42,156 nt of DNA from an uncultured Eubacteriales bacterium (GTDB taxonomy: Bacteria > Bacillota > Clostridia > Christensenellales > Aristaeellaceae): assembly GCA_902765305.1 (NCBI GenBank), contig CACWZI010000020.1:1-42156 (forward strand), given 5' to 3'. This document shows positions 5,406-32,494 of this stretch, piece by piece (positions within the stretch are counted from its first letter, which is position 1; each line of letters opens with the position of its first letter). The position numbers were made by a program, and so were the translations under genes. Under the pieces are notes generated by a model, which saw nothing but the letters and a program-made list of their open reading frames with translations, did not search any database and was not told the origin of the DNA.

Positions 5406-6266
5406 TCACTGCAGTTCAACCGTAGCAATTCTCGGCTCGAAGCAGCAGGCGGGGCGGACGCATACGATCCGCACCCCGGAGGCTCTCTGCGGCCCCACCT
5501 TCATGAAGGTGGCGATGACGGAAGTATCGCCCCGGAGCCCGAGCGGACCGATGTTCGCTTCGTTTACTCTCCGCGTGATCTCCCGTTCCATCTCGGATTG
5601 TTCGTCGTACTTCCCGTCCACCTGCGCCTGGAGCATCATGGAAGTCGCCTCAAAATGGCTCCGGCCCACGCCGACGGCCAGCGTGCAGGGAGAACATCCA
5701 AGCTGCGCCACGCCTTCCCTGGCCCATCCCACGATCTCGTCCAGGACGACCTGGGTGCTATGCCTGTGAAACACGCGATAGGTCTTTGCCCGGATCGCCG
5801 GGCCGCCGCCGAACATCAGGATGTGCAGCCGAATCACGTTGTCCTTGCACCTTCTCAGCAGGATCGGCGCAGGCGCCACGCCAGCGCTGTCCGGGTTCAG
5901 CCCGCCACTCTGGTCGATTCGATGGCTGTCATCCCCCATGATGCCCATAGGCCGTCCCGGGAGCTTGCGCAGGCCTTCCGCCACGCCCTCCCTGATGGCG
6001 TCCAGCATCCTGCCTGTCACCGCGCAGTCCTCACCGACCTCGAGGACAAGATGCGGGATCCCTGAGTCGTCGCACAGGGGAGACTTGTCCCGCTCCGCCG
6101 CTTCCGCATTGGCGAGAACCTGCTCCAGCACCCACCTGGCCTGTTCATTGCGTTCTGTGTCGATCGCCCTTTGATAGGCCGCTTTCTTGTCCGCGCGGAA
6201 CGTACTTCCGGCGTCCACCAGCGTATCCCGCACGAGCGCGACGATCGCTTCATAAGTCCTGGTCAT
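5406..6266 (-). CDS. Class I fumarase / tartrate dehydratase, alpha subunit
   Basis: The 286-residue protein is the iron-sulfur subunit of the two-subunit class I hydro-lyases (fumarate hydratase, L-tartrate dehydratase and relatives), which add or remove water at dicarboxylic hydroxy acids. Three cysteines in typical cluster-ligand settings are visible: PLCDDSG, GCSPCTLAVGVG and RPACCFEPRIATV. Length is normal for a free alpha subunit. The start has a strong site (GGGAGGAG, 5 nt before ATG) and lies inside the end of the beta-subunit gene (17-bp overlap), so the pair is co-translated. It is the last gene of a metabolic cassette inside a capsule locus. A housekeeping TCA role is unlikely given that setting. 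The substrate cannot be read from the sequence. Confidence 0.85.
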   Translation of the reverse strand: MTRTYEAIVALVRDTLVDAGSTFRADKKAAYQRAIDTERNEQARWVLEQVLANAEAAERDKSPLCDDSGIPHLVLEVGEDCAVTGRMLDAIREGVAEGLRKLPGRPMGIMGDDSHRIDQSGGLNPDSAGVAPAPILLRRCKDNVIRLHILMFGGGPAIRAKTYRVFHRHSTQVVLDEIVGWAREGVAQLGCSPCTLAVGVGRSHFEATSMMLQAQVDGKYDEQSEMEREITRRVNEANIGPLGLRGDTSVIATFMKVGPQRASGVRIVCVRPACCFEPRIATVELQ

Positions 6267-6765
6267 AGATGCTCCTCCCGTGCGCCGCGCCGATGATGGC
6301 GGGGTATTTGTCCACCTTGATCAGGTGCAGCGCTTCCATGCCCAGCTCGGGGAAGGCCACGACCTTCTGCTCCGTCGTCTTTGCGCCGAGCAAAGCCGTC
6401 ACCGGAGGAATCACGGCGTACACCGCATTGCAGCGATCCAAAGCGGCTATCGTCTTCGGATGCAGCTGTCCCTTCCCCAGATGCAGCTTGATCCCGGCGG
6501 CGGACAGCGGCGCAATGCTGCTCTCGATCTCCAGCTTGTTGCTGGATGTCGGCCCCACGCCGGCAGGGCTTACCGCCGTGTGGAAGATGACCTGCCCGTG
6601 CAAATCCACGCCAAGCTCTGCGACTGTTCCATCCTCGATCATCTTCAGCACCTTCGGCAGCACCGCGTCACGGCCACAGAGGATATAACCGCTGATCTCG
6701 ACGGTATCCCCCACCTGGAGGCTTGCCGCCGCTTCTTCTGAAATCGGCGTGCTCAATTGAACCAT
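6250..6765 (-). CDS. Class I fumarase / tartrate dehydratase, beta subunit
   Basis: At 171 residues this is the usual size of a separate beta subunit. Family segments are visible: VGDTVEISGYILCGRDA near the N-terminus, SPAGVGPTSSNKLE in the middle, then LGKGQL and LGMEALHLIKV. In fumarases and tartrate dehydratases the loop normally reads GPTTS followed by an Arg-Met pair; here it reads GPTSSNKLE, a change next to the substrate-binding region that may signal a different substrate. GAGGG lies 7 nt before the ATG. The gene overlaps the alpha subunit and follows the HpcH-like lyase gene after 21 bp, so it belongs to the same transcript. Confidence 0.85.
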   Translation of the reverse strand: MVQLSTPISEEAAASLQVGDTVEISGYILCGRDAVLPKVLKMIEDGTVAELGVDLHGQVIFHTAVSPAGVGPTSSNKLEIESSIAPLSAAGIKLHLGKGQLHPKTIAALDRCNAVYAVIPPVTALLGAKTTEQKVVAFPELGMEALHLIKVDKYPAIIGAAHGRSIYDQDL

Positions 6766-6786
6766 TGTTTTGCCCTCTTACCGTCT

Positions 6787-7932
6787 TTAGTCGTTCACCG
6801 CAAACAGCTTCACATGGCCGCTCTCGTCCCGGATGACGCCATAGGCGCGGGCACGATTGTACACCTTGCGCGCCCAATTGGTGTGCGGCTTGATCTCGTT
6901 CATCTTGTTGCCGCCGGAGCCCTTGATCACGCCGCCGCTGGTGCCCAGGATCTGGCAGGCGTCGTTGTATTCTTCCTTGGTCACGGCCATCATGGCATTT
7001 ACGAACTTGACGTGGGTGGGATGGATGACAGTGCGGCCCACAAAGCCGTTCGCCTTGTCCAGGATGACCTCGCGCAGCAGGCCGTCGATCTCATTGTTCA
7101 CGATCGATTCATGCCTGGTCAGGTAGTCCTGAATGCCGTAGTGGGGCAGCTCGTCAAACATGAGCTCCTTCGGCGCGCGGAAATACTCCCACACGGGGCC
7201 GGAGACGACATAGTCATTGTCGCGGCCAAACATATTCAGGATATCGTTCAGGCACTCGCGAACCGTCATTATATCGTACACCGAATAGCCCACGCCACGG
7301 CGCACGCCGAACACAGAGGAAAAGTCCGTCGCGCCGACGCGAACCTGCAGCACCAGATTCTTGTACTTGTCGAGAATGCGCTTGATTCCCGTCAGCTCGT
7401 ACATGCGGGACTCCTTATAGGCGACCTCCTTGTCCTCGATGATCGGCATACCATAGATGATCTCGCCGAACTTCTCGTTCAAATCGCGGAGGTAGGCATA
7501 GTATTCATAGCCGTTCTCGGCATTGAACTTCGGGAAATTGATGCCGCAAAGTACCTTTACCTGATGCTTGGTCAGTCCAGCGCCGAAATGCTTGAACTGG
7601 CCCAGATTGCGAACGCGGACGAAAATCAAGGGAACCTTATCCTCATCCAATTCGCCGTTCTCAATAGCGCTGGAAACCGTATCCAGCAGCTTGTGAATGT
7701 TCTCCTCCGCCTCAAGCACCCGCTCCTCAGGGCAGGCATCCTCGCAGCACAGCACCATGCTGGTCAGTCCAGGCATGGCGTTGGACAGGATCTTCGGCGC
7801 AAAATCCTTGAAACCCGGCATATACATCGTAGCGCCAAGGCAATACTGCAGCATTTCACGTTCAGTGTACTTATTGAAGTGTTCGGGCTCCACAATGAAT
7901 TTGAAGTCCGGATTATACATATGATGTCTCAT
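6787..7932 (-). CDS. HpcH/HpaI-like C-C bond lyase, TIM barrel
   Basis: The 381-residue protein resembles the C-C bond lyase branch of the HpcH/HpaI aldolase and citrate lyase beta superfamily, the same broad phosphoenolpyruvate/pyruvate-binding fold as PEP mutase. Segments that fit metal and substrate binding include LVLCCEDACPEE near residue 60, LIFVRVRNLGQF, MPIIEDKE and VRVGATDFSS. Near the C-terminus GFVGRTVIHPTHV matches the G-(K/R)-xx-IHP motif of this superfamily. Family members cleave or form hydroxy-acid C-C bonds (malyl-, citramalyl- or citryl-type substrates). The ATG has AAGGAAGGA 7 nt upstream. Neighbours are a U32-like protein upstream and a fumarase-type hydro-lyase downstream, suggesting a short acid-building route. 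The exact reaction is unknown. Confidence 0.7.
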   Translation of the reverse strand: MRHHMYNPDFKFIVEPEHFNKYTEREMLQYCLGATMYMPGFKDFAPKILSNAMPGLTSMVLCCEDACPEERVLEAEENIHKLLDTVSSAIENGELDEDKVPLIFVRVRNLGQFKHFGAGLTKHQVKVLCGINFPKFNAENGYEYYAYLRDLNEKFGEIIYGMPIIEDKEVAYKESRMYELTGIKRILDKYKNLVLQVRVGATDFSSVFGVRRGVGYSVYDIMTVRECLNDILNMFGRDNDYVVSGPVWEYFRAPKELMFDELPHYGIQDYLTRHESIVNNEIDGLLREVILDKANGFVGRTVIHPTHVKFVNAMMAVTKEEYNDACQILGTSGGVIKGSGGNKMNEIKPHTNWARKVYNRARAYGVIRDESGHVKLFAVND

Positions 7933-8125
7933 GACAAGTCCTTCCTTTCGGTTACTGTTCAGGCATGCAAATTCTGATTTACCGAACTGAATAGATACGA
8001 TTCAGTCATAGCTAAATACTGATTCGATACGCCTCTCGTTTCCCCTGCCGTGGCTGTCTGCCTGTCACGGTTTCATGCCGTCGGCCCGATCCAGGCACGC
8101 TTTCCTGTCAGGGCAGGCAAACGAC

Positions 8126-9040
8126 TCACATCGTCTCCTGGGTCAGGCTCCCCTTCGGGCTCCAAACGGCCTCCGGGTAATACGCGTCGATCATGCGCTT
8201 GACGAGGCTGCACTGCTTGGCGCGCTTGCGGGCGTCGTCCTCGGTGCTGTCCCAGCTGTGGGTGGCGGCCACGGAACCGCCGGTCTTCAGATAGATCGGG
8301 GCGGCAATGCGGATCATTTCCGGCACCTCATAGTGGCGGATGAAACCACCCGTTGACTTCGGATTCTCGGTGTGAATATCTATGGGGCAAGAAATCGCCT
8401 GGCGCATGGCAGAGAGCATCTGGAGCTGGATGTCGCGCACGGGATTGATGGAATCCGCGCCGATCGTCTCCAGGAGCTTTGCGGCGCAGGGATTCCCGTG
8501 CCCCGCGTGGGCGGAAATCTTGAAATGGCAATCCTCCGGAATCTCGCCGGCTTTGCGCATCTCATTCAGTATCCACAGGCAGCCTTCATCGTAGACCAGG
8601 AATCCGCGGCAGCCGAGCCGGGCCGCCCGCTTCACGTCCTCGATGGCCCGCACGATCTGCTCCTGTCCGCGCAGGCGATAGCCCATCCTGACGCCTTCCT
8701 CCGTGTGAACAGACGCAGAGGTATCGGTCGTCGCGCGAGGCCCGATCGCGAGGATCAGGTCGGTTTGCCACTGGTGGGCCAGCTCCACCATCTTTGCGAT
8801 TTCCTCGTCCGTCAGACGCATGATGCCCTGGGTCTGGGTGACGCGATGCAGGTAAAGGCCATAGCCGTCCATGGCCTCCAGCAGCGCCTTCATGACCTTG
8901 GGTCCCTGGATGCCGGGCACCTCAAACCGGTACTGGCCGCCGTCCTTGAAGCGCTTCTCAGACGTCGGCAGGTCGTAGGCATCGCCCCCGGGAAGGCCAA
9001 CAGACTTCAGAAACGCTCTCGTCTTTTCTATGCTGTTCAT
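8126..9040 (-). CDS. U32-peptidase-like TIM-barrel protein, function unknown
   Basis: The 304-residue protein has alternating strand/helix character and resembles a group labelled U32-family peptidase by automatic pipelines. Recognisable stretches are LHRVTQTQGIMRLTDEEI, LILAIGPRATTD, GCRGFLVYDEGCLWIL, GADSINPVRDIQL and CPIDIHTENPKSTGGFIRHY. Most U32 members are not proteases; several act in RNA or cofactor modification, and nothing here indicates peptide hydrolysis. Its place between the TPP decarboxylase and the C-C lyase, in one transcript, argues for a metabolic role such as an aldolase or isomerase. A gap of 193 bp separates it from the lyase gene and I see no gene in it. AGGAAGG lies about 10 nt before the ATG. 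Confidence 0.5.
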   Translation of the reverse strand: MNSIEKTRAFLKSVGLPGGDAYDLPTSEKRFKDGGQYRFEVPGIQGPKVMKALLEAMDGYGLYLHRVTQTQGIMRLTDEEIAKMVELAHQWQTDLILAIGPRATTDTSASVHTEEGVRMGYRLRGQEQIVRAIEDVKRAARLGCRGFLVYDEGCLWILNEMRKAGEIPEDCHFKISAHAGHGNPCAAKLLETIGADSINPVRDIQLQMLSAMRQAISCPIDIHTENPKSTGGFIRHYEVPEMIRIAAPIYLKTGGSVAATHSWDSTEDDARKRAKQCSLVKRMIDAYYPEAVWSPKGSLTQETM

Positions 9041-9090
9041 CTCAACATATTCCTTCCTGCCACAGTGTGGCGCTTATTACCTGGTTTAAG

Positions 9091-9110
9091 CCCTCCAACA
9101 GGCTGGAGGG
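9091..9110 (-). other. Intercistronic hairpin between decarboxylase and U32-like genes
   Basis: CCCTCCA (9091-9097) and TGGAGGG (9104-9110) form a 7-bp stem with a 6-nt loop, 17 nt beyond the decarboxylase stop and before the U32-like gene. No T-tract follows. It may tune the relative expression or stability of the two parts of the transcript. Confidence 0.4.
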
Positions 9111-9126
9111 GATATTTGATCGGGGT

Positions 9127-10257
9127 CTACCCGTTCAAATCATCGATCAGGGCGTCGATGGCTTCCCGGTGGTCGAAGACGATCGGGGGCAGCTTTCGAG
9201 ACAGTCCCTTGTGTATGCGGCAGTCGATGAACGCGGCCTTTGGGCAGTTCTTCAGCTGCTCTATCGCTTCGGTCAGCTCACCCTCGGTCTCTACGGCCTT
9301 TCCAACCGTCGCATAGCCGCACGCCTGCGCGATCTTCGTAAAATCCACCAGGTGCCCGGCCGAGGGCTGCCCGCCCACGGACTCGTGGGCCCCGTTGTTG
9401 AGGACGACGTGAAGGAAATTCGGCGCCTTCACCTTGCTCACCATCGTCATGGCGCCCATGTGCATCATGGCCGCGGAATCGCCGTCCAGCGCGACCACGG
9501 GGCGGTCCGGCCTGGCCAGCGCGATGCCCAGGGCGACAGACGACGCATGCCCCATGCTGCCCACGTTCAGGAAATCGCGCGCCTTCGTCTCGCCTCGCTT
9601 CTGCCGGAGGAAGAACAGCTCACGGGTCGCGCGTCCCGTTGTCGCGCTGTAAATCGTGTTCTCCGGCATGTGGTCGAGAATGACCTCAATGGCCTCCTCC
9701 CGGCTCATGGGGTAAGCGGCGTCCACATTGTTGGGCTTGTCCGGATCAGCCATCACGCCCTTCGGCGCGATAAAGGCGTAGACGCCGCGCGCCTCACGGC
9801 AGTACGTGACCGCCTTATCTACAGCCCTTGCGAACGCCTCGTTATCATCCGTGAGAATGGAATACGGGATATGCATGATGTCGAGGACGGACGCCGTGAT
9901 CTCACCCTGCCGCCAGTGCTGGGGGTGGTTCGGTTCGGTATTGCCCTGTCCGCGCCAGCCGATCAGAAGGATCATCGGAACCGCATAGACGTCCTTATCC
10001 ACGAGGGACGCCAAAGGGTTGATCGCGTTGCCCTCTCCGCTGTTCTGCATGTACACGAGAGGGATCTCTTTCGTTGCCAGATAGTGGCCGGCCGCCAGAG
10101 CCACGGCGTTCCCCTCGTTCGCCGTGATCACGTTCCGATCGCCACAATGCGCCAGCGCGTAATTGCAGAAGCCGTTCAGGTAGCTGTCCGGCACGCCCGC
10201 AAAATAGGAAACGCCGTGCCGCGCCAGACAATCAAATACTTTCTCCTGGTCCAACAT
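9127..10257 (-). CDS. aepY: Phosphonopyruvate decarboxylase-like TPP enzyme
   Basis: The 376-residue protein closely resembles phosphonopyruvate decarboxylase, which uses thiamine diphosphate and magnesium to turn phosphonopyruvate into phosphonoacetaldehyde. Visible hallmarks are the N-terminal GVPDSYL, the glutamate that activates the cofactor (ITANEGNAVALAAG), MQNSGEGNAINPL, and the cofactor/metal motif GDSAAMMHMGAM followed by LNNGAHESVGGQPS. Sulfopyruvate decarboxylase is a close relative. The usual partner, PEP mutase, is not in this window, so the true substrate may be another beta-substituted pyruvate. The gene starts one base after the stop of the aldo/keto reductase gene, which would be a natural next step for its aldehyde product. 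Confidence 0.8.
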   Translation of the reverse strand: MLDQEKVFDCLARHGVSYFAGVPDSYLNGFCNYALAHCGDRNVITANEGNAVALAAGHYLATKEIPLVYMQNSGEGNAINPLASLVDKDVYAVPMILLIGWRGQGNTEPNHPQHWRQGEITASVLDIMHIPYSILTDDNEAFARAVDKAVTYCREARGVYAFIAPKGVMADPDKPNNVDAAYPMSREEAIEVILDHMPENTIYSATTGRATRELFFLRQKRGETKARDFLNVGSMGHASSVALGIALARPDRPVVALDGDSAAMMHMGAMTMVSKVKAPNFLHVVLNNGAHESVGGQPSAGHLVDFTKIAQACGYATVGKAVETEGELTEAIEQLKNCPKAAFIDCRIHKGLSRKLPPIVFDHREAIDALIDDLNG

Positions 10258-10258
10258 C

Positions 10259-11242
10259 TTACTTCTTCTCGCCTCCTACGGAGCCTTTTCCCCTGTACAG
10301 CGTGAAGTATTCCGGGCTGTCGCCCTTTGTGAGCGCCCAGGCTTCATCAAACGCGGCCACAATGTCCTCCGGCAGGGGACCGGCTTTGACCGCCGCCATG
10401 TTGCCAAGCAGATGGTTCAGTTTGGAAGCCCCGATCAGTATCGCGTCACCCCGCGCCGCATCCAGCATGGAGTGGTAAGCCAGCCAGCGGTAGGTGGCCT
10501 CGACGGGACCGATCCCGCGCTTCTCTGCCGCCGCCTTGATGACCTCGACGCCATCAAAGAAGCGCTTCTTCCAGTATCGCCCCCGGTAGTTGGGGCGATG
10601 GGTAAACCGTCCGTCCGTGGGCGTGTCCTCATATTTGCCATACCGCCCGGTCAGCAGGCCGCCGCACAGGGGATTGTAGGCGTAAAAGCGCATGCCGAAA
10701 TAGTTCAGGCAATCGTTCAGCTCCGCTTCCGCGCGCCTGGTCAACGGATTATAGATACCCTCGAACACCGTGGGCTTCACCCAGCCGTGCCTGTCGCAGA
10801 TGTGCCAGGCGTCGGCAACCATCCACGCCGGGAAGTTGGAAAGGCCCAGCTCGCTGAACTTTCCCCGATCATGAAGGTCTGCCATCGCCCCCAGCACCCC
10901 CTCCACCGGCGTCGCGGGATCGGGGAAATGCAGGAATACGGTATCCACAGATTCCAGTCCCAATCTCTCCAGGCTCTCAGGAAGCTGTTTATAAGCCGCG
11001 TCCGCATCCAGCCTTCCGCTGATTCTCGGGTTCACCTTCGTGGCGATTTTGAACGGTCGGTTCAGTCCCGGCAGCGCCTCGCCCAATAACTTCTCACAAT
11101 TCCCTTCGTTATAGACATAGGCGGTATCCAGTTCATCATAGCCTGCATCCAGGAACGCGTTCACAAACGCTCCGACCTCCGGCTGAAATACGGACTCACC
11201 GAACGTCATCGTGCCAAGGATCAGGTTCACGGGTTTTTTCAT
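10259..11242 (-). CDS. Aldo/keto reductase
   Basis: The 327-residue protein is an NADPH-type aldo/keto reductase with a TIM-barrel fold. The catalytic tetrad is visible: Asp and Tyr in ELDTAYVYNEG, Lys in KIATKVNP and His in VFLHFPDP; GLSNF and IGASKLNHL, near the cofactor site, are also present. It is nearest to the aflatoxin-aldehyde reductase-like group. The open frame extends to 11284, but the ATG at 11242 overlaps the stop of the MmgE/PrpD gene (ATGA), so that start is preferred. It ends one base before the decarboxylase gene. A plausible role is reduction of the aldehyde made by that decarboxylase to an alcohol. Confidence 0.85.
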   Translation of the reverse strand: MKKPVNLILGTMTFGESVFQPEVGAFVNAFLDAGYDELDTAYVYNEGNCEKLLGEALPGLNRPFKIATKVNPRISGRLDADAAYKQLPESLERLGLESVDTVFLHFPDPATPVEGVLGAMADLHDRGKFSELGLSNFPAWMVADAWHICDRHGWVKPTVFEGIYNPLTRRAEAELNDCLNYFGMRFYAYNPLCGGLLTGRYGKYEDTPTDGRFTHRPNYRGRYWKKRFFDGVEVIKAAAEKRGIGPVEATYRWLAYHSMLDAARGDAILIGASKLNHLLGNMAAVKAGPLPEDIVAAFDEAWALTKGDSPEYFTLYRGKGSVGGEKK

Positions 11243-12582
11243 AGCGCTGCACCTATCAACTTTATTGGATTCTCGAATCGGCATATTCCTTCTATCTTTT
11301 CTATCGCTTCTACCAATTTCATTATCGTTTCTTCCGTTGCCTGCCCCTGCGCGCAGACGCTGAGCTTGTCGATAATGACGTCTCGTGTCAGAGGCTTCTC
11401 GGGATCGCCCTTTGGAACGAGAATCGTTTCCTCTTCCCGCCGGCCATCCTTCATTATCACTTCAACCCTTGTTCCTCGGATTCCTCTGGCGCGATCCTCC
11501 ATCGTTGCATCGGGGATCAGGCTCGTCTTCTCAATAAGGCCCAGGACATCTTCCGTCAGCTTTGGCGGATCCATATCAGCTATTCCATAACTGCCCTGCA
11601 AAAGCGCGCAAGCCAGCGTGTATTGGATGGAAAACTTCGTCTCGTCCTGATCCTTCGGGATCTTGATCCCTGCCAGCTTTATTGCGTTGGGGTAGATATG
11701 AACATTTACGGATTTGATCAGGGAAGGCTCTACCCTTCCGTGCAACGCTACAGCCGCATCGATCCCACAGTGCGTATGACGGCAGGACGGATAGAGCTTG
11801 AAGTAGCAATCATGGAGGAGGAGATGGTCTGAGCTTTTCAAAAACGCCTCATGTACCTCGTCTGTCACGGCATGGAACCAACCGTTCTGTCCTTCCAGCG
11901 ACTCGGCAGGCCCCTGCACCCCCTCATTGGCCAGCATAGCCGCAAACACACCGTTCTCAGCGGCCTTCCCAGGGTTCAGGGGCTTAATCGCCGGTCGTGA
12001 ATCTCCGTAGGAAAGGAGTCCTCCCGTCATTGTGGTCGCCAGCGCAATAGCGTCCTCTATCCCCTGCGCGCCTGATCCATACAATCTCGCGCATGCGGCT
12101 GCGCAAGCTAAAGTACCGGCCACACCGGTGGAGTGGAAGCCACGGGCTACCAGCCCAGGCTGCGCCGCTGATGAAATCCTTATATACGCCTCATACCCTG
12201 TGGCCAGAGCAACCAGCACATCTTCGTTACTGCTGCCCAGCTGATCTGCCAGGGCGAATACAGCGGGGATCAAATGAACACCCGCATGCCCGGCAGCCTT
12301 CTTGTTTCCGTCATCAAGCTCCGCTCCGTGACCATAGAATGCATTCATGAATGCGGCAAGGCGAACAGGGTACTTTTTCTCCTGGAAGAGTACATAGCTC
12401 TCCTCCACTCCCCCCTGTGGATACACCACGGCTTCAACCTTCTCATTAATGGCTCGGTTCTGCTTGTATCCGGCATAAGCCGCAGCGAAGAAGTCTATGA
12501 TCAATGTCCGAAGCTGTTCTCTATCCTTTTCATTCAAATCTATTTTTTCCAGATCTCTGCACAGATCGGTTGTAATCCCCAT
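11239..12582 (-). CDS. MmgE/PrpD family protein
   Basis: The 447-residue protein has the length and all-helical first half of the MmgE/PrpD family, which includes 2-methylcitrate dehydratase, cis-aconitate decarboxylase and iminodisuccinate epimerase. Typical segments are the early Y-x-x-x-AxNAFYGHGAELDD-like stretch (about residues 93-107), AGVHLIPAVFALAD and the middle region FHSTGVAGTLACAAACARL. These enzymes act on di- and tricarboxylic acids without an iron-sulfur cluster. It is the first gene of the seven-gene cassette, follows the ATP-grasp gene by 103 bp, and is coupled to the aldo/keto reductase by a 4-bp overlap. The particular reaction cannot be assigned. Confidence 0.8.
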   Translation of the reverse strand: MGITTDLCRDLEKIDLNEKDREQLRTLIIDFFAAAYAGYKQNRAINEKVEAVVYPQGGVEESYVLFQEKKYPVRLAAFMNAFYGHGAELDDGNKKAAGHAGVHLIPAVFALADQLGSSNEDVLVALATGYEAYIRISSAAQPGLVARGFHSTGVAGTLACAAACARLYGSGAQGIEDAIALATTMTGGLLSYGDSRPAIKPLNPGKAAENGVFAAMLANEGVQGPAESLEGQNGWFHAVTDEVHEAFLKSSDHLLLHDCYFKLYPSCRHTHCGIDAAVALHGRVEPSLIKSVNVHIYPNAIKLAGIKIPKDQDETKFSIQYTLACALLQGSYGIADMDPPKLTEDVLGLIEKTSLIPDATMEDRARGIRGTRVEVIMKDGRREEETILVPKGDPEKPLTRDVIIDKLSVCAQGQATEETIMKLVEAIEKIEGICRFENPIKLIGAAL

Positions 12583-12685
12583 TTCTATATCCCCACAATA
12601 CTCGCTATACTCACTATGCCCACCTGATACGGTGTGGCGCGCTCAAGGCATGCCTTCCGACGGTGCACAATAACCCCTGTATATT

Positions 12686-13843
12686 TCAATGTCTCTTATT
12701 CTTTATTTTCGTTCTGTAGCTTGTGATTTGATGGAACAGGTTCCTCCAGAACGGCTTCTTATCATCCTTGCTATAAAGAACTTCCTGCGTGTTCTTCCAG
12801 CTGAACCAGGATGGCTTCGCCCTGAACCGATCCGGAGATTTCAGAAACCATGCTATATCTGTGTCAAAATGCCTGAGGTACATGCCAAACTTATCATTCT
12901 CTGGATACTTGATAACATCCTGATCAAAGACCATCTCCAGCATCTGACGGGAGATGTTGAATCCACACATAAATGCCATCTTGACGCTCTGAGGAATGCG
13001 CCCGTTTATTTCCATCAGCCTCGGTTCGCCGGTTTCTTTATCGATCATAAAAGCCACATCGGCAAATCCTCTCCATCCAAGCGCCTGAAGGAGCTTTCCG
13101 GCATAGGGCATCATTTCTTTCGCGTCAACCGTCTGGAGCAATACTGCTGATCCGGCATCGACAGGGAATCGACGTAATACATCAACTGAATATGACGTGC
13201 ATACCTGTACCTTCTGATCAATGAACAGCAGGCAACCCAAGTGCTTATCGAAGTTTACAAATTCCTGCACCACATAGTCGTCCGGATCCAGCTTCCTTTC
13301 CTTCATGTACCGCCAGAAATCTTCCCGTTTTTCAAACTTACAAAAGCCGATGGAGCCTAACCCCTGCCGCGGTTTGATGATGATCGGAAAACGGCAGGTG
13401 TTCAGGTATTCCTCGATATCCTGTTTGCTATGGCGCGTATATGGGCACGGAATGCCGTTTTCAATGGCTGTGTCAAAAGTAAACTGCTTATTGAACGCCT
13501 TGATGTAGACCTCCCGCGGCGCACATGCGATCTTTACATAGGGCTTGAATTCATCCTCATGCTGCGTGACCGGATTCGTGCTGAGCTCACCTATGGGCAT
13601 GATGACATCGTAATTGCCGCTTTTGGCCTGATCCAAAAGAAACGGTATGTATTCAGGATTCTGAGGTTTCATATCCTTTACCAACAATTTCTTGTCGGGT
13701 AATTTGGACACATAACAGACATCCAGTCTTGTTGTGCAGAGGACCGTTACTTGGCAGCCTATTTCCTTTAAGCCCCGGATCATGGCGATCGTCTGCTTCC
13801 CTGCGCCGTCAAGAACCAGCACCCTTGTTCCTTTAAAATCCAT
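12686..13843 (-). CDS. ATP-grasp ligase (carbamoyl-phosphate-synthase-like)
   Basis: The 385-residue protein starts with a Rossmann-like strand (GTRVLVLDGAG), then a typical ATP-grasp core: FPIIIKPRQGLGSIG for nucleotide binding, VVQEFVNFDKH, and a metal site ending in LMEINGRIPQS. ATP-grasp enzymes activate a carboxylate as acyl phosphate and join it to an amine, thiol or hydroxyl. In capsule loci such enzymes are thought to attach amino acids or other acids to sugars. It lies immediately before the metabolic cassette, so it is a candidate for using that product. AAAGGAG stands 8 nt before the ATG. A 15-codon vestige with a near-identical N-terminus is found at 24062-24160. Confidence 0.8.
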   Translation of the reverse strand: MDFKGTRVLVLDGAGKQTIAMIRGLKEIGCQVTVLCTTRLDVCYVSKLPDKKLLVKDMKPQNPEYIPFLLDQAKSGNYDVIMPIGELSTNPVTQHEDEFKPYVKIACAPREVYIKAFNKQFTFDTAIENGIPCPYTRHSKQDIEEYLNTCRFPIIIKPRQGLGSIGFCKFEKREDFWRYMKERKLDPDDYVVQEFVNFDKHLGCLLFIDQKVQVCTSYSVDVLRRFPVDAGSAVLLQTVDAKEMMPYAGKLLQALGWRGFADVAFMIDKETGEPRLMEINGRIPQSVKMAFMCGFNISRQMLEMVFDQDVIKYPENDKFGMYLRHFDTDIAWFLKSPDRFRAKPSWFSWKNTQEVLYSKDDKKPFWRNLFHQITSYRTKIKNKRH

Positions 13844-13889
13844 TACTCTGACTCCTTTTTACCTGCCCTTCTCTTTTAAAGCTGTTCCC

Positions 13890-13957
13890 CTTCATTTTTA
13901 TCCGCGCGCTTTGCGGATTGATGAATGATGTCATCATCGGCAGGGATAAAAATGAAG
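13890..13957. repeat. 14-bp inverted repeat with inner palindromes
   Basis: CTTCATTTTTATCC (13890-13903) pairs perfectly with GGATAAAAATGAAG (13944-13957). The 40-nt loop contains CCGC/GCGG (13902-13916) and TGATG-T-CATCA. It fills the 129-bp gap between the polymerase gene and the ATP-grasp gene. On the minus strand no T-run follows. It may be an attenuating hairpin or a small insertion scar. Confidence 0.65.
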
Positions 13958-24162: not shown

Positions 24163-24816
24163 TCATGCGCGCCCGGCCCTGTTCTTGATCTCTACCAGCT
24201 CAGGCTGGTCTTTAAAGTCTTTCTTTCCCACCAATACCTGAAGAATGGTTACGATCGTTCTCCAAACCAAACTACAGTCGTATTTGAAGCTTTGTCGTTC
24301 AACATACATTTTTTCCATTTCCAACTTGATGGGCAGAACCTCTCGCCTGTATGCCATATCATCTTTATATGTATCGCCTACTGTATAATCATAAAGGCTT
24401 GCTGCGCTTGTCAGTCCAGGCTTCACTGTTGAGACCTTGGCATACCTGCCCGTGTAAAGATCATCTACCCTTTCAACAGACATCGGCCTTGGACCCACAA
24501 TACTCATATCCCCCTTGATCACATTAAACAGCTGGGGCAGCTCATCGATTTTCAACCGACGAATCACGCTTCCAAAGGGAAAAACCCGATCCGGGTCAGC
24601 CACAAACATGTCCTTCTTTTTGCCCTGGTGCATGGATCGGAACTTATAGAACTTGAAAGGTATTTTATTCAACCCTGCCCTCATCGTATGATATAAAATC
24701 GGGCCGGGACTGGAAAGCTCAATGCCTATGATCGCAAACAAGAACAGAGGAGAGAGGACAATGGCTGCAAAAGAGCATAAAACAATGTCAAGGCATCTCT
24801 TCACATACTTATACAT
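24163..24816 (-). CDS. Initiating sugar-1-phosphate transferase (PglC/EpsL type)
   Basis: The 217-residue, single-domain enzyme lacks the extra N-terminal helices of WbaP/WcaJ and so matches the short PglC/EpsL form of monotopic phosphoglycosyl transferases. A re-entrant hydrophobic helix lies at about 11-33 (VLCSFAAIVLSPLFLFAIIG). The family core follows: FKFYKFRSMHQGKKKD, RRLKIDELPQLFNVIKGDM and SIVGPRPMSVER. It moves a sugar phosphate from the UDP-sugar to undecaprenyl phosphate and so starts the repeat unit. With the dehydratase, aminotransferase and NeuD-type genes upstream, the first sugar is probably a bacillosamine-type diamino sugar. Confidence 0.88.
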   Translation of the reverse strand: MYKYVKRCLDIVLCSFAAIVLSPLFLFAIIGIELSSPGPILYHTMRAGLNKIPFKFYKFRSMHQGKKKDMFVADPDRVFPFGSVIRRLKIDELPQLFNVIKGDMSIVGPRPMSVERVDDLYTGRYAKVSTVKPGLTSAASLYDYTVGDTYKDDMAYRREVLPIKLEMEKMYVERQSFKYDCSLVWRTIVTILQVLVGKKDFKDQPELVEIKNRAGRA

Positions 24817-24829
24817 ACGCTTAAGCTCC

Positions 24830-25498
24830 TTATTCCGGCTTGATCTCCCTGATCAGGCTGAATGCCTCAGCCGCAAGGCAATTCACGGTCGACCCCCTGT
24901 ACCTGGCCAGCGCCTCGAGCGCTCCAATTGATCTGGCCGCAGGGAATTCTCCCAACTGAATTTCAAAAGCCTTCATTGCATCGAGCTTTTTTTGAAGCGT
25001 ATTCGAGATATCTTCGTATACGGTAGGTATAAATTCATTTGTCGTGTTCGGGATGTCCCATCCCGTTTCCGACAGAGTTTCATAAGCATAGATCCTCTCA
25101 GGGCAGTTTTCATATTTGGGCCTCAGGGCAACCATACATGCATCGACAATCATCTTATGATCGAGCTGCATATCCCCTCGGTGAGGAATGTAGACTTCAT
25201 CCGGCGCAGTCTTCTTTACGACTTCCATGATTGCCCCGTTCAATTCATAGCGGGGCACCGTTTCAAGCATAACCGCGGGATAATTGAGGAATATCGTCTC
25301 TTTCACCCCTAACAGTCTGTCTGCTTCCCTGCATTCCCGCTGTACTTCTTTGGTCCTCTCTTCCGTGTAAAGCGGCGGCTTTCCGCACGTTACAACACAC
25401 ACATATACACTGTCTCCGGCAATGACTCTCTTTGCTATCGTTCCACCTACGCCAAGTATTTCGTCATCTGCATGTGGCGCAATTACCAATACATTCAT
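24830..25498 (-). CDS. PIG-L/LmbE family deacetylase
   Basis: The 222-residue protein opens with VLVIAPHADDEILGVGG, the zinc-binding AHxDDE-type motif of the PIG-L family, and has the second metal-binding stretch IPHRGDMQLDH. These enzymes remove N-acetyl groups from GlcNAc-type sugars. It lies between the initiating transferase (13 bp) and the NeuD-type acetyltransferase (20 bp), so it presumably edits an acetamido group on the first sugar, a lipid-linked intermediate or a nucleotide sugar. Having a deacetylase next to an N-acetyltransferase suggests that another acyl group is put on the freed amine, possibly by the ATP-grasp enzyme. Confidence 0.85.
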   Translation of the reverse strand: MNVLVIAPHADDEILGVGGTIAKRVIAGDSVYVCVVTCGKPPLYTEERTKEVQRECREADRLLGVKETIFLNYPAVMLETVPRYELNGAIMEVVKKTAPDEVYIPHRGDMQLDHKMIVDACMVALRPKYENCPERIYAYETLSETGWDIPNTTNEFIPTVYEDISNTLQKKLDAMKAFEIQLGEFPAARSIGALEALARYRGSTVNCLAAEAFSLIREIKPE

Positions 25499-25518
25499 TC
25501 TGAATACCTCAGATGTTG

Positions 25519-26169
25519 TTACTTCCTGAAAACTCTTTGGCTTTCATTTTTCCTGACAAACTTAGCCGGATTTCCAACCACAACAGCGTCATCCCCGACG
25601 TCCTTCACCACTACAGCGCCCATCCCGACGATAACATTCTTTCCGATCGTTATGCCGTTTCTTACCAGTGCGCCTGTCCCGATATAGGTGTTGTCCCCTA
25701 CTTTTACATTTCCACCCAGTGTAACCTTTGGACTCAAAACACAATAATCGCCAAGAACACAATCATGACCAACGAGTGCATATTTATTGATCATGCAGCA
25801 ATGCCCGATTTGCGCATTGACAGATACATAAGAATGACTGTGTAATAGCGTGCCCTTTCCCACGGCAGAAAACTCCGGATTGAAATGATCGGAAATGTCC
25901 ACTGTTACTTCGCCGACGCCTGCCCTTGCAACTTTCTCTGAAACAATCCTTCTGACAGCAGGTTCCCCGATAGAAATGATCACCTTGATCTCTTCTGGCC
26001 TTCTTTCTGTGAGCATCTCGTCAAGGGTTCGGCTTCGCACGCCCATGCACGCTCTGATATTCGGATTGTCATCGATAAATCCCATTAGCTTGTATTTCTC
26101 AGAGTACATAAAATACTCTGCAAGCTCATCTCCCACTCCACCGCAGCCATAGATATATACTTCTTGCAT
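25519..26169 (-). CDS. NeuD/PglD-type sugar N-acyltransferase
   Basis: The ATG at 26169 follows GGGGGG and gives 216 residues; a GTG at 26181 would add four. The N-terminal Rossmann-like part (VYIYGCGGVGDELAEYF) binds the nucleotide sugar. The second half is a left-handed beta-helix of hexapeptide repeats (LVGHDCVLGDYCVLSP, VKVGDNTYIGTGALVRNG, VIVGMGAVVVKDV) ending in VVVGNPAKFV. A histidine in the GHDC turn fits the catalytic base position. PglD acetylates the 4-amino group of the bacillosamine precursor. The gene directly follows the aminotransferase gene that would make this amine. Confidence 0.85.
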   Translation of the reverse strand: MQEVYIYGCGGVGDELAEYFMYSEKYKLMGFIDDNPNIRACMGVRSRTLDEMLTERRPEEIKVIISIGEPAVRRIVSEKVARAGVGEVTVDISDHFNPEFSAVGKGTLLHSHSYVSVNAQIGHCCMINKYALVGHDCVLGDYCVLSPKVTLGGNVKVGDNTYIGTGALVRNGITIGKNVIVGMGAVVVKDVGDDAVVVGNPAKFVRKNESQRVFRK

Positions 26170-26186
26170 TTTTCCCCCCACTTAAA

Positions 26187-27494
26187 TCACATAAAGCACC
26201 TGTGAATAATCTCAATAATCTGGGCCTGCTGCTCTTCCGTCATCTTGTTGTCGCTCGGCAAGCACAGTCCACGACGGAAAATATCGGCTCCAACATCCAC
26301 GCCTACGCCCTTGATATAGGCATTCGTACGACCCCTGCCGTTCCCTTCGGCCGTGACAAACGGGTTCGTTCTGTAGATCGGCTGCATATGCATGGGCTTC
26401 CAGATCGGCCGGCCCTCGGCGTTGAAGGCGCTGATCGCCTCCAGTATCTCATGCGGGGAGCTCTTCCCCGGCTCCGTCTGCCACAGGTAATCCTGCTCGC
26501 CGCGAACCGTCGGCGCCATGGCGTCCTCGTCGATGATGCAGCAGCTCAGCCAGAAGTTCGGCATGCTGTCCTGCCGATCCCAGGGGTTCATCCGCACCGG
26601 CAGGTCGGCCAGCCCCTTCTCGTACCTTTCCCAAATCCTCCGCTTCTGGTCGATATGCGCGTCCAGGTACGGAAGCTGCCCGCGCACGATGCCGGCCACG
26701 ATATTGCTCATGCGGTAGTTATAGCCGATCTCCTCGTGCTGGTACCAGGGCGCCGCCTCCCGGCTCTGCGTGGACCATTTCCGCACCTTTTCGGCGTCCG
26801 CCCTGGAATCCGTGAGGAACATTCCCCCGCTGCTGCCCGTGATGACCTTGTTGCCGTTAAAGCTGATGACGTTGTACTGGCCCAGCGTGCCGGTCTCCAC
26901 CCATTCGCCGTTCAGCCTGTACTTCGCGCCCAGGCTCTCGGCGGCGTCCTCCACGATCAACGCGCCGTGGGCGTCCGCGATCCTTTTGATCTGCGCCATC
27001 CTGCCTGGCGTGCCGTACAGGTGGGCGACGACGATCAGCTTCACGTCGGGGTAGATTTCAAACGCCTTCTCCAGCGCCTGTGGGTCCATGTTCCAGGTGT
27101 CGCGCTCCGTGTCGATAAAGACCGCCTCGCCGTCCTCGTAGGCGATGGGGTTGATCGAGGCGTCGAAGGTCATGTCCGCGGCGAAAACCTTCCTCCCTGC
27201 CAGGGTGCCCGCATTCGGCTTCGCCTGGCCATAGAGCCGCTCGCCGGCCAGCTTCGTGGCCAGATGCAGCGCGGCCGTTCCGCAGGAAACGGCGACGGCA
27301 TATTTGCAGCCGATATACCCGGCCACCTGCTGTTCAATGGCGTCGATGTTCTCTCCAACTGTAGATATCCAGTTGGTCCGTATGGCCTCGTCCACCCAAT
27401 GCTGTTCATCGCCATGAACGGTGGGGGAGCTCAGCCATACCTTTTTCTCAAACGGTTTGATGCCCTCGAATCTCGGGTCCTTCTTAAAGTCCAT
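26187..27494 (-). CDS. DegT/DnrJ/EryC1/StrS aminotransferase
   Basis: The 435-residue PLP enzyme is a sugar aminotransferase. The PLP lysine is K216 in FNGNKVITGSSGGM; VSCGTAALHLA (69-79) holds the cofactor phosphate, and IVEDAAESLGAKY (180-192) has the aspartate that binds the pyridine nitrogen. It would convert a UDP-4-keto-6-deoxy-hexosamine from the PglF-type dehydratase to the 4-amino sugar, as PglE and EpsN do. It is longer than PglE (about 386 residues), with insertions near residues 85-100 and 325-345. The next gene is the matching acyltransferase. Confidence 0.88.
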   Translation of the reverse strand: MDFKKDPRFEGIKPFEKKVWLSSPTVHGDEQHWVDEAIRTNWISTVGENIDAIEQQVAGYIGCKYAVAVSCGTAALHLATKLAGERLYGQAKPNAGTLAGRKVFAADMTFDASINPIAYEDGEAVFIDTERDTWNMDPQALEKAFEIYPDVKLIVVAHLYGTPGRMAQIKRIADAHGALIVEDAAESLGAKYRLNGEWVETGTLGQYNVISFNGNKVITGSSGGMFLTDSRADAEKVRKWSTQSREAAPWYQHEEIGYNYRMSNIVAGIVRGQLPYLDAHIDQKRRIWERYEKGLADLPVRMNPWDRQDSMPNFWLSCCIIDEDAMAPTVRGEQDYLWQTEPGKSSPHEILEAISAFNAEGRPIWKPMHMQPIYRTNPFVTAEGNGRGRTNAYIKGVGVDVGADIFRRGLCLPSDNKMTEEQQAQIIEIIHRCFM

Positions 27495-27526
27495 ACTGCC
27501 TTCTCTCCCGTCTCAATACCGGACGC

Positions 27527-29353
27527 TCACGTCTCGCTGTTTTTAACAAATATGCGGGGGCACACGGTTTCATCGACGTTCTCCCCCCCAGCTACCCACA
27601 GCCGTATGGTCACCGCCTGGCAGTTTTGGGGCACCGTAAACTCGGTATCGCCCAGCGTTTTCAAGCTGCCAATCCTTTTCTTCCCTTTGTTGTTTGCATA
27701 GAAATAAATACACAGGTACACTTTATCCGATGAATACCGAACCCTGTACGTCTCCCCATTTAACAAATAAAAGGGCCTCTCCCCCATGAGAAGGTTATTA
27801 AAGGAAGTGCCCTGGGCCACACCGGCCACCCTGCACGAGCCGTCCTCCTGCCACCGGTAACTGATACCGACGCTGTTCTCGACGCTCTCCTTCCGCACCA
27901 ATTCCAGCAGGTTGACGCCTGCATCCCCCAATACCCGTTCACGAATGTCCACGGTATTGCCCTGGGCGTCCAGGAACGCCTCGCCGGTGAGATTGCCGTC
28001 TTCATCGTAGCTTCGGCGCCATGTGGCAAATCCGTTCCGATTGTCTGCGGGCATCCCCTGGCCATCGTAGTATTTCTCCACGGTCAGGCGGCCTTCTTCG
28101 TCGTATTCACGCGCGTAAGCGCTGTAACCGTCGGTACAGGCCACCGGATTCCTGTCAACATCGAAGTACTTCTCGGAAATGACTTTGCCCGCTTTATCGT
28201 ATTCCTTCAAGGCAATCGCGTATCCGGTATCCAGTCGGTTCATGAGCCGGCCTTCGGCGTCGCAGTAGCTTTCTTCGATGAGATCCCTGCGCCTGAGGTA
28301 CCTGTACCGCGTCTCATACCTGCCAGAGGCCAGTATGGGCTGGTCCTGCACATCCAGGCTGGTGTCCGAATTGATCAGCCAGGCCAGGCCATGCATTTCA
28401 TAGCTCCTCCTCTTGCCGGAGAAGCCATCTGTCGTCGTTACCCGCCGGCCTGTATGGTCATAGTACCTTTCTTCGGTCCGGTTGCCCCATCTGTCGTAGG
28501 CATATTCCCTTGTGGCAATCGTCGATAATTTGCTGTAGAAAGGCTTACCGTCCGCGTCCAGGGACGCGTTCAACACGATCTGGCGCTTCTCGTTCAGTAC
28601 TAAATCAGTCCGCTTCGTCCCGCTTACAGCATAGATGCTGTACCCTTCCGTTTCCCCGATCGGTTCATATCCACTTTTACGGAAGGCCGCCGTTGACTTC
28701 CAGTTCCGCTTTACGACGACATAGTCGACGTCGTCGTTGCCGGCCAGGGTCATCACCCTGGCGGCATCCGGGTCACGCTTGTTCAATTCGGCGAGCAACG
28801 GCACCGGATCCCCGTGAATCACCCGGCCGTAGGGCATCAGGATGCTTCCGTCCACCTGCCTGGCATAGATGTGCAGCGGACTGGGCAGGGCAACGCGCAC
28901 GGTTTCATCCTCATGGGGTATGGCCGCCAGGACGTTGAGAACCTCATCGGGCACTTTTTGGGGGTTCTCCGCCGCCTTCATCCAGGATTCCCGGTAAATG
29001 CTGCTCCCTGCGAAGACAAAGACCAGCAGCGCCGCGCAGACGCCGAACAGCTTAAGAATGCCCTGGACCTTTTTCACGACCATCGTCGCGCCATGGGCCA
29101 TGCAATAGAAAACCGGTATGATCGAAAACAGTCGGACGTAGTACACCTCGGCTTTCTTGAAAAACAGGGATACAGCCTTCGAGGTCAGGGGATTGAACAC
29201 GGCGACGAGCGCCACGACGGGAAAAACGCCAAATACCAGCTTGTAGGTCTTGCGCTTTTCAAAAATCAGGATCAACAGTATGCTGGCATAGAAAACCCAC
29301 TGCAAGCGGCTCCCGCTCCAGTACATTTCATTGACCTTTGTGTATTGCTCCAT
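27527..29353 (-). CDS. Membrane protein with YD-like repeats, downstream half
   Basis: The protein has about 608 residues. It has three or four membrane helices in the first 120 residues, then a globular part, then about six YD-like repeats between roughly 265 and 465 (YYDHTGRRV, YCDAEGRLM, YFDVDRNPV, YYDGQGMPA, FLDAQGNTV), and a beta-rich C-terminal region. GGAG stands 7 nt before the ATG at 29353. The upstream membrane-protein gene is in the same frame: its TAA is followed by seven sense codons and then ATG (29359), so the two could be halves of one protein of about 966 codons (DUF6077-like polytopic protein, from memory). The repeat type is shared with the VanZ-domain protein at 3790-5253. 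Function unknown. Confidence 0.65.
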   Translation of the reverse strand: MEQYTKVNEMYWSGSRLQWVFYASILLILIFEKRKTYKLVFGVFPVVALVAVFNPLTSKAVSLFFKKAEVYYVRLFSIIPVFYCMAHGATMVVKKVQGILKLFGVCAALLVFVFAGSSIYRESWMKAAENPQKVPDEVLNVLAAIPHEDETVRVALPSPLHIYARQVDGSILMPYGRVIHGDPVPLLAELNKRDPDAARVMTLAGNDDVDYVVVKRNWKSTAAFRKSGYEPIGETEGYSIYAVSGTKRTDLVLNEKRQIVLNASLDADGKPFYSKLSTIATREYAYDRWGNRTEERYYDHTGRRVTTTDGFSGKRRSYEMHGLAWLINSDTSLDVQDQPILASGRYETRYRYLRRRDLIEESYCDAEGRLMNRLDTGYAIALKEYDKAGKVISEKYFDVDRNPVACTDGYSAYAREYDEEGRLTVEKYYDGQGMPADNRNGFATWRRSYDEDGNLTGEAFLDAQGNTVDIRERVLGDAGVNLLELVRKESVENSVGISYRWQEDGSCRVAGVAQGTSFNNLLMGERPFYLLNGETYRVRYSSDKVYLCIYFYANNKGKKRIGSLKTLGDTEFTVPQNCQAVTIRLWVAGGENVDETVCPRIFVKNSET

Positions 29354-29380
29354 CCGCATTCTCCATTGGGCGCTCCGCCA

Positions 29381-30427: not shown

Positions 30428-30463
30428 CGCTTCGATGTCCCCGGATAAATGCCTTCAACGCCG

Positions 30464-32443: not shown

Positions 32444-32494
32444 CCCGCTCTTTGTCCTTTCACTATGCTCGCTTTCCCTGTTTTGCTGCAGCAA

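What the first reader, a model, noticed from the sequence alone, without database searches (positions are those of the whole stretch)
5406..12582. Seven-gene acid-chemistry cassette embedded in a capsule locus
MmgE/PrpD, aldo/keto reductase, TPP decarboxylase, U32-like barrel, HpcH-like C-C lyase and a two-subunit class I hydro-lyase are packed with overlaps or short gaps, directly after an ATP-grasp ligase. Seen: gene order, overlaps, motifs. Known: these families act on di/tricarboxylic and 2-keto acids. Inferred: they build a short hydroxy acid, phosphonate-like or diol-type group which the ATP-grasp enzyme attaches to a sugar amine freed by the PIG-L deacetylase. I know of no described capsule pathway with this set.
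Basis: partly seen in the sequence, partly recalled or inferred. Interest (0 to 1): 0.78.

Follow-up and report, generated by a model that had tools for sequence, protein, structure and literature searches.

The report
Capsule-locus operon making an unknown acid
Gut and rumen bacteria share a conserved seven-gene operon, mostly inside their surface-sugar gene clusters, that probably makes a small, still unidentified acid for attachment to capsule sugars.

Summary
Window 5406-12582 (minus strand) carries a PrpD/IRG1-like protein, aldo/keto reductase, Ppd-like TPP decarboxylase, U32-like TIM barrel, PF15617 C-C lyase and a two-subunit class I hydro-lyase, tightly packed after an ATP-grasp gene. 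It is no one-off: 48 of the 80 nearest loci carry all seven in one order and strand. Of 39 loci of 20 kb or more, 33 carry polysaccharide markers, against 2 of 28 control stretches. In 10 of 15 transporter-type genomes an ATP-grasp lies upstream on the same contig. This supports acid synthesis for a capsule sugar. The product is unknown: most likely an omega-hydroxy acid (Ppd+AKR loci) or a 2-hydroxy acid (loci with a D-2-hydroxyacid dehydrogenase), amide-linked to an amino sugar by the ATP-grasp enzyme. The barrel is uncharacterised; wider kin sit beside citrate-lyase or malic-enzyme genes in catabolic-looking clusters.

The parts
12686..13843 (-). ATP-grasp ligase, 103 bases upstream of the cassette; probable acid-to-amine ligase
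   Evidence: Pfam ATP-grasp_3 40.5 bits (cut-off 23.2), CPSase_L_D2 30.3 (19.8); NCBIfam only below cut-off
11239..12582 (-). MmgE/PrpD-superfamily protein of the IRG1 / IDS-epimerase branch
   Evidence: PF03972 169.5 bits and PF19305 107.9; best solved relatives B. subtilis IRG1 (117.5 bits) and IDS-epimerase (95); 2-methylcitrate dehydratase only 31 bits; methylcitrate-dehydratase equivalogs far below cut-off
10259..11284 (-). Aldo/keto reductase; an ATG at 11242 (ATGA overlap with the PrpD stop) is the likelier start
   Evidence: PF00248 184.5 bits; D53, Y58, K83, H119, which fit the recalled AKR tetrad, are kept in at least 97% of 59 aligned sequences
9127..10257 (-). Ppd-like TPP-dependent 2-keto acid decarboxylase, a clade of its own
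   Evidence: TIGR03297 399.9 bits, cut-off 312.5; separate from the PepM-linked Ppd clade, support 1.0
8126..9040 (-). U32-like TIM-barrel enzyme of unknown activity
   Evidence: No Pfam hit itself; 7 of 12 alignment members weakly hit PF01136; AF2 mean pLDDT 81.1, pTM 0.83; Foldseek/VIA matches to aldolase, U32, ICL/PEPM, CutC and RuBisCO barrels
6787..7932 (-). CitE-like C-C bond lyase, PF15617
   Evidence: 378.3 bits, cut-off 28.4; weak citE and RipC hits below cut-off
6250..6765 (-). Class I hydro-lyase beta subunit (FumB/TtdB-like)
   Evidence: PF05683 76.6 bits, cut-off 22.2
5406..6266 (-). Class I hydro-lyase alpha subunit (FumA/TtdA-like); Cys 65, 191, 194, 274, 275 conserved
   Evidence: PF05681 158.7 bits, cut-off 25; cysteines kept in at least 97% of 70 sequences
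24163..32494 (-). Amino-sugar part of the same capsule locus: priming sugar transferase, PIG-L/BshB-like deacetylase, NeuD/PglD acetyltransferase, LegC/PseC-like aminotransferase, UDP-GlcNAc 4,6-dehydratase-like protein (with two other genes between)

Best explanation
The operon is a portable module that makes a short hydroxy acid for attachment to an amino sugar of the cell-surface polysaccharide. Shown: gene content, order, recurrence, polysaccharide context, recurrent ATP-grasp genes, two alternative exit modules. Inferred: the IRG1-like PrpD, the [4Fe-4S] hydro-lyase FumAB, the CitE-like lyase and the U32-like barrel reshape a C4-C6 hydroxy di- or tricarboxylate, drawn from central metabolism or (where DctM is present) imported, into a 2-keto acid that keeps a second carboxylate, an oxaloacetate-like isostere of phosphonopyruvate. 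The Ppd-like enzyme decarboxylates it to an aldehyde acid and the aldo/keto reductase reduces that to an omega-hydroxy acid. In variant loci a D-2-hydroxyacid dehydrogenase instead reduces the keto acid to a 2-hydroxy acid. The ATP-grasp enzyme activates the remaining carboxylate and forms an amide with an amino sugar; in the window this would be a bacillosamine-type sugar made by the 4,6-dehydratase and the LegC/PseC-like aminotransferase.
For: 48 of 80 loci with all seven genes in one order and strand. Polysaccharide markers in 33 of 39 long loci against 2 of 28 stretches from 13 of the same genomes; two or more classes in 25 of 39 against 1 of 28; DegT or Neu amino-sugar genes in 23 of 39 against 1 of 28. 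ATP-grasp within about 10 kb in 23 of 39; in 15 of the 22 DctM-type loci I asked for the whole genome, and in 10 of 15 an ATP-grasp is on the cassette's contig and strand, the nearest 9-28 kb upstream (six of the ten have one of 44-50% identity to the query, the others only 24-29%; chance rate not computed). Ppd+AKR is replaced by a D-2-hydroxyacid dehydrogenase in a minority (12 against 61 labelled rows), and L060 has both exits with one barrel, one lyase and one FumAB, which fits a shared 2-keto acid. CitE-like role of the lyase: CitDEF stands in that place in L025/L026 and CoA-transferase-like genes follow it in L083, L090, L094 (these named by eye). Precedents: V. cholerae O1 perosamine N-acylated with tetronate (PMC3441752, passages); an ATP-grasp enzyme that amidates a C4 diacid derived from fumarate (PMC12568646, abstract).
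Against: No enzyme activity or glycan structure is known. The lyase gene was not found anywhere in 4 of 6 genomes (MAGs) whose locus lacks it, so it may not be essential. The barrel has no assignable chemistry. Wider kin of the barrel sit beside citrate-lyase, malic-enzyme and transporter genes with no polysaccharide genes recognised, so the core chemistry may have been catabolic first. 12 of 39 long loci have DctM, 8 of these with LysR, which could be read as import and degradation. 16 of 39 long loci have no ATP-grasp of the two clusters within the fetched stretch, and 5 of 15 DctM genomes have none on the cassette's contig. The 80 loci are the nearest of 405 relatives; the rest were not seen.
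Confidence: 0.5

Rival explanations
1. A catabolic or fermentative operon for an imported di- or tricarboxylate: hydration/dehydration, C-C cleavage to acetyl-CoA plus a keto acid, then decarboxylation and reduction as an electron sink. It lies in capsule islands only because those are insertion hot spots.
For: DctM (TRAP large subunit, PF06808) close upstream in many loci, often with a LysR regulator (22 of 80 with a DctM hit); CitDEF, malic-enzyme and Tct/TAXI contexts of wider barrel kin.
Against: 33 of 39 long loci carry polysaccharide markers against 2 of 28 controls, and 9 of 12 long DctM loci do too; an ATP-grasp is on the same contig in 10 of 15 DctM-type genomes; by eye I recognised no TRAP solute-binding subunit in the DctM loci whose genes I printed; loci without DctM keep the whole set.
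Confidence: 0.22
2. The acid is real but is not amide-linked by the ATP-grasp: it is an ester or ether, is linked to an amino acid, or a sugar-transfer ATP-grasp or acyltransferase does the joining.
For: ATP-grasp proteins near the cassette are diverse and sometimes several (L063, L034; one search shows LAL_C2, PylC-like and ATPgrasp_ST hits); 16 of 39 long loci have none of the two clusters within the fetched stretch.
Against: An ATP-grasp directly precedes PrpD in 18 of 75 PrpD genes, and amino-sugar genes recur (23 of 39).
Confidence: 0.19
3. A phosphonate or sulfonate pathway: the decarboxylase works on phosphonopyruvate or sulfopyruvate and the AKR makes hydroxyethylphosphonate or isethionate.
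For: TIGR03297 over cut-off; 2-aminoethylphosphonate on glycans is known (PMC6697681, passages); in 2 of the 7 PepM-bearing cassette genomes (those of L045 and L072) the PepM gene lies about 4 kb downstream of the cassette, and in a third (that of L052) about 50 kb away on what appears to be the same contig.
Against: No PF13714 match in the own genome; PEP mutase over cut-off in 7 of 50 cassette genomes; 7 of the 9 PepM stretches read carry a Ppd of their own, 42-45% identical to the window's, in a separate clade; no ComA over cut-off in 50 genomes, one sub-cut-off match; neither product has a carboxylate for an ATP-grasp amide.
Confidence: 0.06
4. A relative of the Ter-associated biosynthetic module, which also has PF15617 and an ATP-grasp and was proposed to make a nucleoside-like metabolite (from the Pfam names and recall).
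For: PF15617 over cut-off and a sub-cut-off ATPgrasp_Ter hit (26.5 bits against 29.1).
Against: No Ter proteins among the 30 window ORFs scanned; the other cassette enzymes have no known place there (recalled).
Confidence: 0.03

Closest known systems
Vibrio cholerae O1 tetronate (3-deoxy-L-glycero-tetronate) N-acylation of perosamine
   Same: A gene set inside a surface-polysaccharide locus assigned to making a small hydroxy acid that acylates the amine of an amino sugar (PMC3441752, passages read)
   Different: None of the seven families here is named in the passages read; its enzymes are of other families (recalled)
PepM-Ppd-AEPT phosphonate tailoring of glycans
   Same: Uses a Ppd-family TPP decarboxylase in surface-glycan loci (PMC6697681, passages read)
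   Different: PEP mutase not found in the own genome and over cut-off in 7 of 50 cassette genomes; cassette Ppd is a separate clade; AKR instead of transaminase
Mesaconate/citramalate and itaconate degradation (class I hydratase, CoA transferase, CitE-like lyase, CitDEF; recalled pathways)
   Same: Hydro-lyase, IRG1-like member of the PrpD superfamily, CitE-like lyase; CitDEF or CoA-transferase-like genes in some kin loci
   Different: Those are catabolic (recalled); here Ppd, AKR, U32-like barrel and ATP-grasp are added and the operon sits in polysaccharide loci
E-64 biosynthesis ATP-grasp enzyme
   Same: ATP-grasp amide ligase using a C4 dicarboxylate (epoxysuccinate) derived from fumarate (PMC12568646, abstract)
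   Different: Fungal, couples to an amino acid, and the acid is made by an oxygenase

Membership tests
Phosphonate biosynthesis (PepM-Ppd) | PEP mutase present | tested here: not met
   Own genome: no PF13714 match (93% complete MAG).
Phosphonate biosynthesis (PepM-Ppd) | Decarboxylase belongs to the phosphonopyruvate decarboxylase clade | tested here: inconclusive
   Over the TIGR03297 cut-off, but in a clade apart from PepM-linked Ppd, with fixed differences such as S293T, Q297M, S299T; no assay
Sulfopyruvate / coenzyme M-type route | ComA phosphosulfolactate synthase present | tested here: not met
   PF02679 over cut-off in 0 of 50 cassette genomes, one match below cut-off (own genome not among them); cysteate as a source not tested
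Class I fumarase / tartrate dehydratase superfamily | PF05681 and PF05683 with conserved cluster cysteines | tested here: met
   158.7 and 76.6 bits, both over cut-off; Cys65, 191, 194, 274, 275 conserved in at least 97% of 70 sequences; cluster binding itself not testable
Named fumarase or L-tartrate dehydratase | NCBIfam subfamily or equivalog cut-off reached | tested here: not met
   TIGR00722 88 of 100.65; TIGR00723 77.4 of 145.15; the equivalogs listed are also below cut-off
2-methylcitrate dehydratase (PrpD proper) | Equivalog cut-off reached | tested here: not met
   27 to 39 bits against cut-offs 458 to 950; nearest solved are IRG1 and IDS-epimerase
Citrate lyase beta (CitE) | TIGR01588 cut-off reached | tested here: not met
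   28.4 of 443.4 bits; PF15617 met at 378.3 of 28.4
Peptidase family U32 | PF01136 match | tested here: inconclusive
   No match for the window protein; 7 of 12 alignment members weakly, best 1e-5; fold match to U32 Mk0906
Ter-associated biosynthetic module | Ter proteins nearby | tested here: not met
   None among the 30 window ORFs scanned with Pfam
Hydroxy-acid N-acylation module of polysaccharide loci | Lies in polysaccharide loci with amino-sugar genes and an amide-forming type of ligase | tested here: met
   33 of 39 against 2 of 28 controls; amino-sugar genes 23 of 39 against 1 of 28; ATP-grasp 23 of 39 within about 10 kb, and in 10 of 15 DctM genomes on the same contig
Hydroxy-acid N-acylation module of polysaccharide loci | The acid is found on the polymer and the enzymes make and attach it | not testable with these tools
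   Needs NMR/MS and enzyme assays

The most novel reading that the evidence does not exclude
The barrel founds an undescribed family of TIM-barrel C-C lyases or isomerases for hydroxy polycarboxylates. The operon is a new acid-building route in which an IRG1-like protein plus a class I hydro-lyase do aconitase-like hydroxyl relocation, with two interchangeable exits (Ppd+AKR or D-2-hydroxyacid dehydrogenase). It spread among gut and rumen lineages to give capsules hydroxy-acyl groups not seen before.
Probability: 0.3. Interest if true: 0.78.

Novelty: new variant of a known kind. Interest (0 to 1): 0.62.

Why it matters
Small acyl decorations of surface glycans can decide recognition by phages and antibodies (for the V. 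cholerae O1 antigen: PMC3441752, passages; otherwise general knowledge), yet their biosynthesis is known in few cases (recalled). Here one enzyme set with an uncharacterised barrel enzyme recurs complete in 48 of 80 loci, each from a genome representing one species, among them named isolates such as Acetatifactor muris (L102), Sporofaciens musculi (L097) and Sarcina sp. DSM 11001 (L064). The product can therefore be sought directly by NMR/MS of strains already in collections, and the enzymes assayed.

Tried and rejected
Phosphonate: PEP mutase searched in the own genome and in 50 of the 80 cassette genomes (8 matches at E 0.001, 7 over cut-off); nine stretches around PepM fetched and read, Ppd trees compared. 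Against my reading: in the genomes of L045 and L072 the PepM gene (fused to a nucleotidyltransferase-like part, by eye) lies about 4 kb downstream of the acid cassette; in L045 it has its own Ppd, which falls in the other clade; in the L072 stretch no Ppd was found. I noticed the second case only on rechecking and raised the odds of the phosphonate reading from 0.05 to 0.06 for it, with the second rival lowered from 0.20 to 0.19.

Sulfonate: ComA not found over cut-off.

ATP-grasp and DctM looked mutually exclusive within 10 kb (2 of 39 loci with both; 12 label changes on the barrel tree). A genome-wide search showed that the ATP-grasp usually lies further upstream on the same contig, so the exclusivity is an effect of the fetched length and I dropped it. 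Four of the ten (G395, G396, G406, G421) have only weak matches (24-29% identity), which may be other ATP-grasp enzymes.

A specific product (3-hydroxypropionate, 3-hydroxyisobutyrate, 2,4-dihydroxybutyrate, malate-type) could not be chosen on evidence. Paper searches gave no description of the set; I saw listings only, except passages of PMC6697681, passages of PMC3441752 (found by one search, read) and the abstract of PMC12568646. The library holds open-licence PMC papers only.

Rows dropped: L039 left out of the context count because marker proteins came from the same genome; U32 rows with a stop in the translated stretch (L032, L046, L081, L109) and rows over 95.5% identical left out of the structure alignment, 60 rows kept with the window; one Ppd row (L045_16) counted with the 65 cassette rows is in fact the PepM-linked copy. 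Control stretches: 40 asked for, 34 given, the 28 of full 20 kb used, from 13 genomes; four of them lie on a contig that also carries a cassette (G402:C27, G408:C20), tens of kb away. The 20 regions are my choice from the matches, the ten from those. Gene calls in the loci are my own simple ORF calls, and cluster names were given partly by eye, so counts of rarer neighbours are approximate.

Full report
What is there. On the minus strand of the window the genes run ATP-grasp, PrpD-like, aldo/keto reductase, Ppd-like TPP decarboxylase, U32-like barrel, C-C bond lyase (PF15617), FumB, FumA. PrpD and AKR overlap as ATGA, Ppd follows AKR after one base, FumA overlaps FumB by 17 bases; the largest internal gap is 193 bases. 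Upstream lies a capsule locus: O-antigen-ligase-type Wzy_C protein, MurB-like enzyme, two pyruvyltransferase-family genes, two GT2, a priming sugar transferase, PIG-L deacetylase, NeuD/PglD acetyltransferase, LegC/PseC-like aminotransferase and a UDP-GlcNAc 4,6-dehydratase-like protein, with unassigned genes between. The host is a 3.88 Mb, 93% complete MAG.

The cassette is a unit. A scan of genomes of 84,980 species with a profile of the barrel gave 479 pattern matches, 405 of them relatives; the 80 nearest (88-95% identity) were fetched. By record titles, mostly of MAG contigs, they are 72 Clostridia, 3 Erysipelotrichia, one each of Spirochaetia, Lentisphaeria and Kiritimatiellia, and 2 without a rank (the third unranked row there is the window). 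48 of 80 loci hold all seven genes in the same order and strand within 6.6-9.3 kb; the others are cut by contig ends, carry the dehydrogenase variant, or lack the lyase. A more distant relative in a one-contig genome of the same phylum (L161) has the same order with an ATP-grasp in front and DegT, RmlA and RmlB behind; six of its seven genes are 47-71% identical to the window's, while its PrpD is of another type (37% to that of L026).

Context. With marker proteins taken from the window and from loci outside the tested set, 33 of 39 long loci have at least one polysaccharide marker class and 25 at least two, against 2 and 1 of 28 stretches of 20 kb from 13 of the same genomes (Fisher p 1.7e-7 for two or more). 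DegT or Neu genes are in 23 of 39 against 1 of 28. An ATP-grasp of two clusters is within the fetched stretch in 23 of 39. In loci with a DctM permease the ATP-grasp is usually further off: in 10 of 15 such genomes one is on the same contig and strand, the nearest 9-28 kb upstream; in six of the ten it is 44-50% identical to the query, in the others weak.

Variants speak to the chemistry. Ppd and AKR go together; where they are missing a D-2-hydroxyacid dehydrogenase (PF02826) is found (12 rows against 61). L060 has both exits with single copies of barrel, lyase and FumAB. That fits a common 2-keto acid that is either reduced to a 2-hydroxy acid, or decarboxylated and reduced to an alcohol; for an ATP-grasp amide a second carboxylate must remain. 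The lyase is CitE-like: citrate-lyase genes CitD, CitE and CitF stand in its place in L025 and L026 (named by eye), and CoA-transferase-like genes follow it in L083, L090 and L094 (named by eye). It may be dispensable: it was not found in four of the six genomes checked (MAGs). The PrpD-like protein is nearer to IRG1 (cis-aconitate decarboxylase branch) and IDS-epimerase than to methylcitrate dehydratase. FumA keeps five cysteines, enough for a [4Fe-4S] site, but neither subunit reaches the cut-off of a named fumarase or tartrate dehydratase, so the substrate may be another hydroxy acid.

Probably not a phosphonate. No PEP mutase was found in the own genome; 7 of 50 cassette genomes have one over cut-off, and 7 of the 9 stretches read around them carry their own Ppd, 42-45% identical to the window's and in a separate clade with full support. 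ComA is over cut-off in 0 of 50. Against this, in two of the seven genomes (L045, L072) the PEP mutase gene lies about 4 kb downstream of the acid cassette; since phosphonates also decorate surface glycans (PMC6697681, passages), both may simply share a capsule island.

The wider barrel family. In the class sample (16 of 391 genomes with a match, own included, five of them weak) and the phylum sample (32 of 398) more distant barrels sit in other settings. Of ten class regions read, L021 has the full set, L022-L024 parts or variants of it, L025-L026 have CitDEF, L027-L029 FumAB with malic enzyme and a PrpD, L030 PanB and folate genes (several names by eye). Of 20 phylum regions read, one is a full cassette, eight have malic enzyme (most with FumAB, Ldh_2 or Tct/TAXI/TRAP transporters), one (L169) has Ldh_2 and CoA-transferase-like genes, and ten show the barrel with none of the other query genes apart from weak hits in L180. 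These other settings look catabolic. So the core chemistry is probably hydroxy-di/tricarboxylate chemistry, and the seven-gene set is its polysaccharide branch.

Verdict. The precedents are the tetronate acyl group of V. cholerae O1 (PMC3441752, passages) and an ATP-grasp that amidates a C4 diacid (PMC12568646, abstract). The product and the barrel's reaction are open and testable.

Noticed in passing
15276-16151 (-): A MurB-like flavoenzyme (NF010480 146.5 bits; TIGR00179 119.4 against cut-off 144.5) sits in the capsule locus near two pyruvyltransferase-family genes; the genome has a murB over cut-off elsewhere (248.4 bits). It may reduce an enolpyruvyl group to a lactyl (1-carboxyethyl) ether on a capsule sugar.
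   Followed up: partly
20243-22366 (-): A fusion of a polysaccharide pyruvyl transferase domain with an FrhB/FdhB (F420 hydrogenase beta-type) domain.
   Followed up: no
12000-20000 against the cassette: GC is 45-49% from about 12 to 20 kb (Wzy_C, MurB-like, pyruvyltransferase, GT) but 57-61% across the acid cassette, so the two parts of the locus may have different histories.
   Followed up: no
L124 (genome of L045) and L123 (genome of L072): A PEP mutase gene lies about 4 kb downstream of an acid cassette in two genomes; the L045 one has its own Ppd.
   Followed up: partly
L162, L164, L168, L170: Apparent catabolic clusters with a cassette-like barrel, Ldh_2, FumAB and malic enzyme, and in parts a creatininase-like protein, an aldehyde:ferredoxin oxidoreductase, a cupin and a nitroreductase; substrate unknown, names given by eye.
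   Followed up: no
L018, 10907-23144 (Enterobacter chuandaensis plasmid): A barrel homologue (35% identity) annotated as U32 family peptidase in a gene cluster with a phosphotransferase, an NAD(P)-dependent oxidoreductase, an aminotransferase, two iron-containing redox enzymes, a nucleotidyltransferase and an MFS transporter; it may make a small molecule.
   Followed up: no
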